A stretch of 64,000 nt of DNA from Aequorivita aurantiaca (GTDB lineage: Bacteria > Bacteroidota > Bacteroidia > Flavobacteriales > Flavobacteriaceae): positions 62,001 through 126,000 of the forward strand of contig NZ_JAUGQQ010000001.1 in NCBI RefSeq assembly GCF_030410135.1, written 5' to 3'. Under the pieces are notes generated by a model, which saw only the letters and a program-made list of their open reading frames with translations, was not told the DNA's origin and ran no database searches. The position numbers were made by a program, and so were the translations under genes. Below are positions 3,004-24,628 of the stretch, piece by piece; the stretch's first letter is position 1, and the number at the start of each line of letters is the position of its first letter.

Positions 3004-3345
3004 TTAAAAAAGCTTGCCGATCGATTTATCCGAATTGGCCACCGCCACCGCCTTTAAGGTTTGATTATATTGATGGGCTATTTCAGGATCCGTATTATTT
3101 TCTACGGAAAATAATCTCTGAAACCACGCTAAGGCCTTGCCATAGTCGCTTTTAAAATAATAAGCGGTTGCCAATTTTTTATAAATGAATGGAGTGCCGT
3201 ATCCTTCCTTTACCACTTGCTCATAAACACGAACTACATCAATATCTTTATTGACGTCAGTTTTGCGAACAATAGTTTGGGAAAAAGAGGAGGAAATTAC
3301 ACTGAAAAATAATAGCAAGGTAAGCAGGTTAAACTTTTTATTCAT
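3004..3345 (-). CDS. Small secreted protein with one TPR-like segment
   Basis: A 113-residue protein with a clear signal peptide (FNLLTLLLFFSVISSSFSQ). The mature part contains LATAYYFKSDYGKALAWFQRLF, which looks like a single tetratricopeptide helix pair. It resembles the N-terminal repeat region of larger flavobacterial OmpA-type proteins, but no OmpA domain follows. It may be a short member of such a family or a remnant. It is convergent with tag with only a 4-base gap. Function unknown. Confidence 0.6.
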   Translation of the reverse strand: MNKKFNLLTLLLFFSVISSSFSQTIVRKTDVNKDIDVVRVYEQVVKEGYGTPFIYKKLATAYYFKSDYGKALAWFQRLFSVENNTDPEIAHQYNQTLKAVAVANSDKSIGKLF

Positions 3346-3492: not shown

Positions 3493-5238
3493 TTATAACT
3501 TTATAACCTTTCTATGAATTTTCCCGAATTCACCTTCAAAGGAAACTAACAGGGTGCCTTGCCAGTTTTGGTTAAGATCCAACGTTATTTTTCCATCGCC
3601 GCTCTCAACAATCGCTTCATATAATTTTTGGCCAAGGAGGTTATGAATTTTTACTGAAACTTCACCTTGAATGGCATTCATTTTAAATGATACTTTTCCG
3701 CTAGTAGGATTGGGAAAGGCCGCTGAAATATGTTTCTGCGCCCATTCCTCCACAGAAAGCGTTTCCACTTGAATGGTCCAATATCCTTCCGGTGCTACAA
3801 TTGGTCGGTTTATTTCTTTGCCCGAAAAGGATTTCGCCCAAAGGTAATATTCTATATTGTTAGTATTTGGGATAGTCAAATCTGCGGTCCAATAATCAGA
3901 ATTAGTTGGCTCCATTACAATTTCATTGTACGTAGTTTCACCTTCTTCCCTCCAAAAAACTTTGGCCTGCTCTATTAACGAAATATGTTTTATTAATGCC
4001 TCGATGGTTACTGTACTGCCGGCATTTGCCTCATCAATAGGCTGATGTACGATCCAAAGTGGTTCCGAAACCCCTATTGTGTGCGTAATACAATGAATGG
4101 CACCCGATGAACTTATTAAATTTTCACCCGGATTATCCACGTCTATCCCAACAACATTATATCCTGGCAGGAGTTCCTGATATTTAGCAAGTGCCGGGCC
4201 ATCAACAGCTGGCCGATAGATAGGAACCATTATAGTTTTGTTTACAAAAATTGCATTGCTATAGGTATTATACGGGCCGCCCGTGTCGGGATAATTTCCG
4301 CCCACACTTGGTGGGGCATCAATCCATTCAATATTATAAGGAGTTCCAAAAGGTGATTCAAAATTGTCCAAAACATATTGGATGTTTGCCTCAATCTGAG
4401 GGCCATCGGCTACTCCCGTGGGATATTTGCTCACTAAAATAGTTTCTTCGTCCAACAATTTCATATGCATATCTATGTGATGGATTAGGTCATAAGGAAG
4501 TGTTTCCATCTTTATATAGCGGTTAATCCCCATATATTCCTGCATTATTCCATCTATTTGTGCTTCCGTTTTTACACTTACGCCATACGGGTTTCCGGCA
4601 GCGTTTTCGTCCAAGACTAATTTTGATGCAAAGGCATTTCCCAAACCATCACTCATATAATTTCCACCGGTGTTCACCAAATCATTCGTACCGGAATTGG
4701 TCACGTAAATTGGTATTCCAGCCTGCGTAGCGTGCGCAGTGGGCATTACATCATCACTTGGCCTGGGGCGATTGTAAATCCAATCCGAAAGCGCTAGCTC
4801 TCCCACATCGTCAGAGTATATGGTATTTCCCGCATAATCCCTAATCCAAATACTGTTCCACGGCGCGTTCATGAAAATAACATTGGTAAGGTCCACCCCA
4901 TTTGTAGTAAGGTAGTTAGAAACCGAGGCTTGATTTTGTGTGGTAATAATTACCTTACATTCCTGCACGCCCGCCTGTACAATTTGCCGGAGAATGATGG
5001 GATAGGCAGGGTTCCATGTAACCAAAAGATATTCCACTTCTTCCCATTCAGCGGCAGCACGAACGGGGCCCGAGGGCGGTGGGCTGTATCGTGTACTGGT
5101 AAACTGAAAATCCGAAATGAGTCCTTTCTCAGTTTCCGTTAAATAATGCGGAAGATTAGGTTTTTCCTGTGAAATGGCAACTGTCGTCTGCAAAGCCACC
5201 AATAATACCAAAAGGTATTTTGTGTAGTTATTTTTCAT
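3493..5238 (-). CDS. Secreted peptidylarginine-deiminase-like / agmatine deiminase family protein with T9SS sorting domain
   Basis: 581 residues. Layout: signal peptide (1-23), guanidino-modifying catalytic domain (about 50-395), Ig-like domain (about 400-492), and T9SS C-terminal domain (about 505-581, opening with AAFPNPTSGK and ending KVIKL). Deiminase catalytic residues are visible: Asp134 in WIRDYAGN, His254 and Asp256 in HHIDMH, and Cys383 in GAIHCITH. Known: Porphyromonas gingivalis PPAD has the same order (CD, Ig-like, CTD), catalytic Asp130/His236/Asp238/Cys351, and Arg152/Arg154 contacting a C-terminal arginine. Arg157 and Arg159 sit at nearly the same distance from the Asp here. 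Inference: an exported enzyme converting arginine (peptidyl C-terminal, or free agmatine) to citrulline and ammonia. A near-consensus -7 element, TATCTTCG, lies at 5261-5268. Confidence 0.85.
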   Translation of the reverse strand: MKNNYTKYLLVLLVALQTTVAISQEKPNLPHYLTETEKGLISDFQFTSTRYSPPPSGPVRAAAEWEEVEYLLVTWNPAYPIILRQIVQAGVQECKVIITTQNQASVSNYLTTNGVDLTNVIFMNAPWNSIWIRDYAGNTIYSDDVGELALSDWIYNRPRPSDDVMPTAHATQAGIPIYVTNSGTNDLVNTGGNYMSDGLGNAFASKLVLDENAAGNPYGVSVKTEAQIDGIMQEYMGINRYIKMETLPYDLIHHIDMHMKLLDEETILVSKYPTGVADGPQIEANIQYVLDNFESPFGTPYNIEWIDAPPSVGGNYPDTGGPYNTYSNAIFVNKTIMVPIYRPAVDGPALAKYQELLPGYNVVGIDVDNPGENLISSSGAIHCITHTIGVSEPLWIVHQPIDEANAGSTVTIEALIKHISLIEQAKVFWREEGETTYNEIVMEPTNSDYWTADLTIPNTNNIEYYLWAKSFSGKEINRPIVAPEGYWTIQVETLSVEEWAQKHISAAFPNPTSGKVSFKMNAIQGEVSVKIHNLLGQKLYEAIVESGDGKITLDLNQNWQGTLLVSFEGEFGKIHRKVIKL

Positions 5239-5348: not shown

Positions 5349-5990
5349 TTACGCTTTAAGCATTCGTAAAAACGCCGTTCTCCTTACCTCTTCAGCGCCC
5401 AAGCTTTCCAAATGGTCGTTATAGATTTGACAATCAATAAATTTATAATTGTGTGCTTTTGCATATTCCGATAGATGGTAAAAAGCCACTTTTGAGGCGT
5501 CGCTCACAAGGCTGAACATACTCTCGCCGCAAAACACTTTTTTATTTGGAAGATTGACGCCGTAAAGTCCGCCAACCAATTCATCGTTTTCCCAAACCTC
5601 AACGGAAACAGCGTGTCCGTCTTTGTGTAAATTTAAATAGGCATTTTGCATTTCTGCTGTAATCCATGTTCCGGCCTGCCCTTTTCTCGGGACCGTTGCG
5701 CAATTTTGAATGACTTCGGAAAAATTAAGGTTGAAGGTAATTTTGAATTTTCCATTATTTAGAATTTTCCGAAGACTTTTTGAAACCTTAAATTTTTCTG
5801 GAAACAAAACCATTCGCGGGTCGGGGCTCCACCAAAGCAGGGGCTGATCAGCCTCAAACCACGGGAAGATTCCGGAATTATACGCGAGCAACAAGCGCTC
5901 CACGGAAAGATTGCCGCCAATGGCGAGCAAACCATCCGAAGTGGTTTCTTCCGGTTTCGGAAACCAAATTTTTTCGGTTAGAAAATGCAT
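5349..5990 (-). CDS. aat: Leucyl/phenylalanyl-tRNA-protein transferase
   Basis: Transfers Leu or Phe from aminoacyl-tRNA to proteins with N-terminal Lys or Arg, marking them for ClpS/ClpAP degradation (N-degron pathway). 213 residues, normal length. Family blocks are clear: GIFPWF, WWSPDPR, and CGESMFS followed by SDASKVAF. The ATG start gives MHFLTEKIWFPKPEE. It is flanked by other minus-strand genes, but a terminator at 6024-6057 separates it from the upstream DUF3127 gene, so it probably has its own promoter. Confidence 0.96.
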   Translation of the reverse strand: MHFLTEKIWFPKPEETTSDGLLAIGGNLSVERLLLAYNSGIFPWFEADQPLLWWSPDPRMVLFPEKFKVSKSLRKILNNGKFKITFNLNFSEVIQNCATVPRKGQAGTWITAEMQNAYLNLHKDGHAVSVEVWENDELVGGLYGVNLPNKKVFCGESMFSLVSDASKVAFYHLSEYAKAHNYKFIDCQIYNDHLESLGAEEVRRTAFLRMLKA

Positions 5991-24106: not shown

Positions 24107-24157
24107 ATTTGGAAAATATTTAACTTTTGGGACCGGCGATTATTCTTATTTTAAGTG

Positions 24158-24628
24158 ATGGTTTATGAAGAAGAAAAAATAATTGTTCCAAGATTCAACG
24201 AAGAGTCCGGCTTTTACACCACGAAAAAGCGCTCAAAAATGATGGGCAAAATCCGTGGGAAGAATACGAAGCCCGAATTGCTTTTCAGAAAAGCCATTTG
24301 GAAAAAGGGGATCCGGTATCGCGTGGACAATAAAAAACTTCCCGGAAAACCTGATGTTTCCATCATAAAATACAAACTTGCCATTTTTATTGATGGCGAA
24401 TTTTGGCACGGTTACAATTGGCCGGAACGAAAGGAAACCTTGAAAACCAATAGAGGGTTTTGGATTCCGAAAATTGAACGCAATATGCAGCGAGACCGCG
24501 AAGTAAATAGTCAACTCGAAGAATTGGGCTTCACTGTTTTCAGGTTTTGGTCCAATGAGATAAAACAAGATTTAGAAAAATGCATCAACGATATTTTAGT
24601 GTACATAAATACAGGACAAAATGATTAA
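24158..24628 (+). CDS. Very short patch repair (Vsr)-like endonuclease
   Basis: 156 residues from the ATG at 24158. Vsr-family blocks: MMGKIRGKNTKPELLFRKA, RYRVDNKKLPGKPDV, FIDGEFWHGYNW, and FWIPKIERNMQRDR. E. coli Vsr nicks at T:G mismatches in Dcm sites and has a structural zinc (Cys66, His71, Cys73, Cys117). In the equivalent CFWHHHHC stretch here the residues are E-F-W-H-G-Y-N-W, so the zinc ligands are gone while the active-site Asp and His remain. No cytosine methyltransferase is nearby. Its last 8 bases overlap the aminotransferase start. Confidence 0.85.
   Translation: MVYEEEKIIVPRFNEESGFYTTKKRSKMMGKIRGKNTKPELLFRKAIWKKGIRYRVDNKKLPGKPDVSIIKYKLAIFIDGEFWHGYNWPERKETLKTNRGFWIPKIERNMQRDREVNSQLEELGFTVFRFWSNEIKQDLEKCINDILVYINTGQND

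What the first reader, a model, noticed from the sequence alone, without database searches (positions are those of the whole stretch)
3493..5238. PPAD-like secreted deiminase outside the oral pathogens
Seen: signal peptide, guanidino-modifying-enzyme core with Asp134, His254/Asp256 and Cys383, an Ig-like domain, and a T9SS C-terminal domain, the same order as P. gingivalis PPAD. Arg157 and Arg159 (NRPRP) sit at the position of PPAD Arg152/Arg154, the pair reported to hold the C-terminal carboxylate of the substrate; Trp131 also lines up with PPAD Trp127. Inference: a surface or secreted enzyme that citrullinates C-terminal arginines, or deiminates agmatine, in an environmental flavobacterium.
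Basis: partly seen in the sequence, partly recalled or inferred. Interest (0 to 1): 0.8.

Follow-up and report, generated by a model that had tools for sequence, protein, structure and literature searches.

The report
Secreted PPAD-related deiminase in marine bacteria
A marine bacterium carries a gene for a secreted enzyme that resembles the gum-disease enzyme PPAD, which alters the amino acid arginine; it belongs to a widespread, apparently untested sister family that keeps PPAD's catalytic and arginine-gripping residues but lacks its tyrosine lid.

Summary
Window 3493-5238(-) encodes 581 aa: signal peptide, PAD_porph catalytic domain, Ig-like domain, T9SS tail. By sequence and predicted fold the nearest solved relative is Porphyromonas gingivalis PPAD, over both domains; agmatine deiminases are far behind. 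The catalytic residues and the Arg157/Arg159 pair are invariant in 111 of 111 'group A' rows (101 distinct).

It is not a PPAD orthologue. PPAD groups with another Bacteroidota subfamily (B) and with lipoproteins (C) that lack the Arg pair; group A lies apart. At PPAD Tyr233 group A has no Tyr (0 of 111); Cys239 is Met and Asp347 is Gly; Asp250 is invariant. The Arg pair alone does not prove C-terminal specificity: PPAD's authors equate it with human PAD4 Arg372/Arg374. Agmatine is unlikely: agmatine deiminases have Glu and no Arg there, and the genome has no canonical AguA or AguB. The only C25 peptidase is PorU, so there is no gingipain-type partner.

Best reading: a secreted deiminase of carboxylate-bearing arginine, probably C-terminal peptidyl-Arg. 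Its substrate is untested.

The parts
3493..5238 (-). CDS of the secreted PAD_porph protein, 581 aa
   Evidence: Pfam and NCBIfam; nearest solved structure PPAD
5170..5238 (-). signal peptide, residues 1-23, likely cut before Gln24
   Evidence: read from the sequence (no predictor run); AF2 helix 4-24
4063..5079 (-). catalytic guanidino-modifying domain, about residues 54-392
   Evidence: Pfam PAD_porph 64-387; alignment to PPAD from residue 52; AF2 model
3763..4062 (-). Ig-like domain, about residues 393-492
   Evidence: phmmer alignment to PPAD runs to residue 482; beta strands in the model; no Pfam family over cut-off here
3499..3717 (-). T9SS type A C-terminal sorting domain, residues 508-580
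   Evidence: PF18962 27.8 bits (cut-off 27), TIGR04183 30.8 bits (cut-off 23)
4837..4848 (-). Trp131-Asp134, equal to PPAD Trp127 and Asp130
   Evidence: 111 of 111 group A rows
4762..4770 (-). Arg157 and Arg159 (NRPRP), equal to PPAD Arg152 and Arg154
   Evidence: 111 of 111 group A rows
4468..4494 (-). mobile-loop segment Tyr249-Asp250-Leu251 with His254, Asp256 and Met257; Leu251 is at PPAD Tyr233 and Met257 at PPAD Cys239
4255..4257 (-). Asn328, equal to PPAD Asn297
4090..4092 (-). Cys383, the nucleophile, equal to PPAD Cys351

Best explanation
A T9SS-exported, Ca2+-independent arginine deiminase of the PAD_porph family, founding member here of a subfamily ('group A') that is a relative of PPAD and not PPAD itself. 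Shown by computation: signal peptide reading, T9SS tail in a genome that has T9SS and PorU, PPAD-type catalytic plus Ig-like fold, all five catalytic residues, Trp131 and the Arg157/Arg159 pair. Inferred: Cys383 attacks the guanidinium held by Asp134 and Asp256, His254 acts as acid/base, ammonia leaves, citrulline results; Arg157 and Arg159 hold the alpha-carboxylate, so the substrate is an arginine with a free carboxylate, most likely the C-terminal Arg of peptides made by other extracellular proteases, acted on at the cell surface or in the medium. The lid differs from PPAD (no Tyr233; Asp250 and an aromatic at 249 instead; Met257 and Gly379 in place of Cys239 and Asp347), so how tightly it reads the peptide bond is open. 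Likely use: releasing nitrogen from, or changing the charge of, arginine-ended peptides during protein breakdown.
For: PPAD is the closest solved structure by sequence and by fold over both domains. W131, D134, R157, R159, H254, D256, N328 and C383 are invariant in 111 of 111 group A rows, 101 distinct; in PPAD the R152A mutant is inactive and R154A keeps about 30% activity (Goulas 2015). T9SS tail over cut-off, 83 of 84 TIGR04183 matches over cut-off in the genome, PorU present (1362.8 bits, cut-off 420). Agmatine deiminases differ at the very positions that bind the substrate backbone. One PAD_porph gene and no AguB over cut-off in the genome. Purifying selection. The gene keeps its place next to aat in most loci examined (56 of 81, 53 scored upstream on the same strand), so it looks long established.
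Against: No activity has been measured. Tyr233, which in PPAD binds the carboxylate and the amide, is missing in all 111 rows. Human PAD4 has Arg at both positions and acts on internal arginines. PPAD Cys239 mutants keep only about 8% activity or none (Goulas 2015), and Cys239 is Met here. No gingipain-type partner: the only C25 peptidase is PorU, and no C11 peptidase was found.
Confidence: 0.5

Rival explanations
1. An extracellular deiminase of free L-arginine: Arg157/Arg159 take the alpha-carboxylate and the invariant Asp250 of the lid takes the alpha-amino group.
For: Asp250 is invariant in 111 of 111 group A rows and the same column is Asp in 11 of 11 agmatine deiminases. Tyr233, which in PPAD also contacts the amide, is missing. 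A 2025 review says PPAD itself can deiminate free L-arginine (PMC12599369, passages).
Against: PPAD has Glu232 at the same column, so an acid there does not exclude peptide substrates. That the acid binds the amino group is my inference; the agmatine deiminase paper that could show it was not held.
Confidence: 0.2
2. An endo-acting peptidylarginine deiminase: without the tyrosine lid, internal or extended arginines fit, as in human PAD4, where Arg372/Arg374 sit at the same places and Ser468 replaces the Tyr.
For: Equivalences given in Goulas 2015 figure legend; small or variable residues at the Tyr233 column (V 35, G 28, Q 15, A 12, E 10, L 4, P 4, N 2, D 1 of 111).
Against: Goulas 2015 also names Arg152 as clashing with extended substrates and that Arg is invariant here. 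The aromatic at 249 (Y 101, F 9, W 1) may serve as a lid instead.
Confidence: 0.12
3. An exported agmatine deiminase, as the usual automatic annotation of the Pfam family would suggest.
For: Weak matches to the agmatine deiminase models (43.7 and 38.2 bits; cut-offs 483 and 381.8). Asp250 and Gly379 are shared with 11 of 11 agmatine deiminases.
Against: Far under the equivalog cut-offs; Glu to Thr and Ala/Ser/Gly to Arg in the pocket; no AguB over cut-off; 9 of 14 group A carriers outside the window's family have a second, high-scoring agmatine-deiminase-like gene.
Confidence: 0.06
4. Some other guanidino substrate with a carboxylate (for example a guanidino acid or an arginine-containing natural product) outside protein breakdown.
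For: The remodelled lid and channel (Met257, His258, Ser/Gly270, Tyr272, Gly379) is conserved within group A and differs from PPAD.
Against: No neighbour gene points to such a pathway; neighbours are housekeeping genes.
Confidence: 0.12

Closest known systems
Porphyromonas gingivalis PPAD (PDB 4yt9, 5ak7, 6i0x)
   Same: Domain order, fold over catalytic and Ig-like domains, five catalytic residues, Trp127, Arg152/Arg154, Thr180, Ile234, T9SS export.
   Different: 30.5% identity. No Tyr at 233, Met for Cys239, Gly for Asp347, Ser/Gly for Arg252, Ile for Arg352; different clade; no gingipain-type partner in the genome.
Group B PPAD-like proteins (L019, L112-L115) of other Bacteroidota
   Same: Arg pair, catalytic residues, T9SS tail in the two scanned complete members (L112, L113).
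   Different: Group B shares Trp240, Asp347 and Arg352 with PPAD; group A has His, Gly and Ile (110 of 111) there.
Agmatine deiminase (AguA; PDB 2jer, 1xkn, 3hvm; TIGR03380)
   Same: Catalytic domain fold and catalytic residues; Asp at 250 and Gly at 379.
   Different: Cytosolic single domain, Glu at the Thr190 column, no Arg pair; scores far under the equivalog cut-off.
Human peptidylarginine deiminases (PAD4)
   Same: Mechanism and, per Goulas 2015, Arg at both positions.
   Different: No PAD_C match in Pfam at E up to 1; human PADs need calcium (Montgomery 2015).

Membership tests
PAD_porph (PF04371) | score over the curated cut-off | tested here: met
   101.1 bits against 25
PAD_porph (PF04371) | catalytic Asp, His, Asp, Asn, Cys | tested here: met
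   D134, H254, D256, N328, C383; 111 of 111 group A rows
PPAD subfamily | falls in one clade with P. gingivalis PPAD | tested here: not met
   PPAD with L019 99/93; group B 100/98; B with C 100/98; group A outside, support for A as one clade only 54/87
PPAD subfamily | Arg152/Arg154 carboxylate pair | tested here: met
   R157/R159, 111 of 111
PPAD subfamily | Tyr233 lid | tested here: not met
   Leu251 here; no Tyr in 111 rows. Also absent in 4 of 5 group B rows, so it may mark PPAD proper and L019 only
PPAD subfamily | catalytic plus Ig-like domain plus T9SS tail | tested here: met
PPAD subfamily | activity on C-terminal peptidyl-Arg | not testable with these tools
   needs enzyme assay
Agmatine deiminase AguA | equivalog score | tested here: not met
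   38.2 bits against 381.8 (TIGR03380) and 43.7 against 483 (NF010070)
Agmatine deiminase AguA | Glu in the EGG motif (residue 157 of 2jer) | tested here: not met
   Thr190 here, Glu in 11 of 11 agmatine deiminases aligned
T9SS type A cargo | C-terminal sorting domain over cut-off in a genome with PorU | tested here: met
T9SS type A cargo | export and tail removal | not testable with these tools
   needs proteomics
Vertebrate-type PADI | PAD_C domain | tested here: not met
   no such Pfam match at E up to 1

The most novel reading that the evidence does not exclude
Group A is a large environmental lineage of calcium-independent, exported peptidylarginine deiminases in which the missing tyrosine lid lets the enzyme act on arginines that are not C-terminal, or on free arginine; PPAD would then be a late, C-terminus-specialised offshoot of an old Bacteroidota family whose secreted catalytic-plus-Ig form and Arg pair existed before Porphyromonas had it, contrary to the published idea that PPAD arose from an agmatine deiminase fused to gingipain-like domains.
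Probability: 0.2. Interest if true: 0.75.

Novelty: new variant of a known kind. Interest (0 to 1): 0.48.

Why it matters
PPAD has been called the only known prokaryotic PAD (Montgomery 2015, passage), and a 2025 review names homologues only in other Porphyromonas species. [quoted passage not shown] It also warns that 'agmatine deiminase family protein' labels may hide secreted peptidyl-type enzymes.

Tried and rejected
Agmatine deiminase reading: rejected as the main one. Gingipain-style partner: sought as C25 and C11 in the genome; only PorU found, no C11; other Arg-specific proteases (for example trypsin-like) were not searched. Gene-neighbourhood function: neighbours are housekeeping genes (Leu/Phe-tRNA transferase, DUF3127, methyladenine glycosylase, TruB, BacA family), no functional link seen. 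Plasmid carriage: 6 records, all under 26% identity, none covering 80% of the query. Structure of a second protein: not run, 1 of 2 jobs used. Two divergent rows (L024, L133) were in the first tree, where L024 (branch 4.9) fell inside group A; I left them out, with near-copies L115 and L123, in the second tree. Arg pair as a shared derived mark of A and B: holding A and B together is rejected, p-AU 0.005, so the pair is either older than the split and lost in C, or gained twice; long branches are in play and the sample is small. Last literature search for PPAD homologues, orthologues or PPAD-like: 6 papers, of which I looked into two (and Goulas); earlier searches. Subscription journals and preprints are not held, and the supplementary tree of Cummings et al. 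was not seen.

Full report
What is there. Window 3493-5238 on the minus strand is an intact 581-codon gene. The protein has a signal peptide (my reading), a PAD_porph catalytic domain at 64-387, an Ig-like region aligned to PPAD, and a T9SS type A tail at 508-580. The tail scores only just over the Pfam cut-off (27.8 against 27) but clearly over the NCBIfam one (30.8 against 23). The genome has 84 matches to the tail model, 83 over cut-off, and its single C25 peptidase is the T9SS sortase PorU. The nearest named relatives are Aequorivita at 82-87% identity, and a locus of a genome called 'same genus' has the identical protein to Aequorivita aquimaris D-24, so the window is most likely an Aequorivita.

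Fold. The AlphaFold2 model from 53 sequences has mean pLDDT 83.8. Foldseek puts seven PPAD chains first (TM 0.84-0.86 on target length), then agmatine deiminases and putative relatives from E 1.2e-20. The second structural aligner was not available.

Residues. I aligned 111 group A rows (101 distinct sequences; 10 pairs are the same protein from two collections), 5 group B, 3 group C, 11 agmatine deiminases and PPAD; two divergent rows (L024, L133) were in the alignment but in no group. In group A, W131, D134, R157, R159, D250, H254, D256, M257, N328, G379 and C383 are invariant (111 of 111). Thr190 is Thr in 107. The PPAD Tyr233 column holds V 35, G 28, Q 15, A 12, E 10, L 4, P 4, N 2, D 1. 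Position 249 is Y 101, F 9, W 1. Agmatine deiminases have Glu at the Thr190 column (11 of 11) and A 8, S 2, G 1 at the first Arg. Group C lacks the Arg pair (0 of 3). Group B has it in 5 of 5, but only 1 of 5 (L019) has Tyr at 233.

What the Arg pair means. In PPAD, Arg152 makes a double salt bridge to the carboxylate and is indispensable, Arg154 is less important, and Tyr233 closes over the carboxylate and blocks extended substrates (Goulas 2015, PMC4487231, passages and section 5; Montgomery 2015, PMC4893104, passages). The same Goulas paper lists Arg152/Arg154 as equivalent to PAD4 Arg372/Arg374 and Tyr233 to Ser468. So the pair supports recognition of an arginine backbone or carboxylate but does not settle exo against endo action. 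Group A also changes residues that line PPAD's ammonia channel (Cys239, Arg252, His258) and the partner of Trp127 (Asp347), while keeping Ile197 as Leu and Glu201 as Glu in 110 of 111.

Relatives and history. In 149 genomes of the window's family 25 have a match at E up to 1e-10: by my reading 17 group A (own included), 1 broken copy, 1 group B, 3 group C, 1 divergent, 2 agmatine deiminases. In 296 genomes of the phylum 22 match L019 at E up to 1e-20: 15 group A (own included), 4 group B (one genus), 2 group C, 1 odd. The group B member L019 of the window's family lies on a 9.65 kb contig and could be a stray contig. In the tree of 46 catalytic domains rooted on agmatine deiminases, PPAD pairs with L019 (99/93), group B is 100/98, B with C 100/98, and group A is one side with weak support (54/87; 56% of 200 bootstrap trees); a tree with A and B together is rejected at p-AU 0.005. 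In the first tree, with two long rows kept, group A was not one clade because L024 fell inside it. The three A members, two B members and one class-level relative scanned carry T9SS tails, and the C members scanned carry none.

Setting. Group A carriers in the window's family have one PAD_porph gene each (17 of 17), so no separate agmatine deiminase; 9 of 14 carriers elsewhere have a second, agmatine-deiminase-like one. C25 peptidases: 16 of 17 family carriers have exactly one, of 1279-1373 aa, and one (88% complete) has none; the 14 others have 2-10. The own genome has no C11 and no AguB over cut-off (two matches of 59.7 and 40.5 bits against 410). The gene lies next to aat (Pfam Leu_Phe_trans) in 56 of 81 loci and the wider order is kept in about as many; the labels counted there are genus names or record titles. 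Within Aequorivita dN/dS is 0.035-0.059.

Function. Best reading: an exported deiminase of arginine with a free carboxylate, most likely C-terminal peptidyl-Arg (0.5). Free arginine (0.2), endo-deimination (0.12), another guanidino acid (0.12) and agmatine (0.06) remain. All chemistry is inferred from homology.

Novelty. PPAD-type sequences outside oral bacteria are not new as such: Cummings 2021 (PMC8826395, passages) say pPAD genes are more widespread than thought, the centipede venom paper (PMC7864903, passages) used thousands of bacterial PAD homologues and reports one Bacteroidetes donor, and the Pfam family is old. What I did not find in the listings is a description of this exported sister family, its invariant Arg pair without the Tyr lid, or its bearing on PPAD's origin. 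Hence new variant of a known kind.

Noticed in passing
window 3004-3345 (-): Small exported-looking 113-aa ORF just downstream, with a relative in 46 of 81 loci and no Pfam match at E up to 0.01; it reads like a short tetratricopeptide piece (my recall).
   Followed up: partly
window 5349-5990 (-): aat (Leu/Phe-tRNA protein transferase) lies 110 bases upstream on the same strand, with the pairing kept in 56 of 81 loci; synteny or a shared transcript, function link doubtful.
   Followed up: partly
L020, L027, L028 (genome G122): Broken copy of the gene in one family member, in three pieces with stops: recent loss. Not mended.
   Followed up: no
L021, L022, L023: Group C: lipoprotein-like PAD_porph proteins without T9SS tail and without the Arg pair, yet sister to the PPAD subfamily. 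Substrate unknown.
   Followed up: partly
L112-L115: PPAD-like group B proteins in one Bacteroidota genus, 880-933 aa when complete, with a long stretch between catalytic domain and T9SS tail.
   Followed up: partly
L093: Record titled Candidatus Rokubacteria holds a group A gene at 62% identity; probably a mis-binned flavobacterial contig.
   Followed up: no
window 24155-24628 (+): Vsr-type DNA mismatch endonuclease (Pfam Vsr 99.8 bits) with no methylase looked for nearby.
   Followed up: no
L024 and L133: Two very divergent PAD_porph proteins on long branches whose place in the family is unsettled.
   Followed up: no
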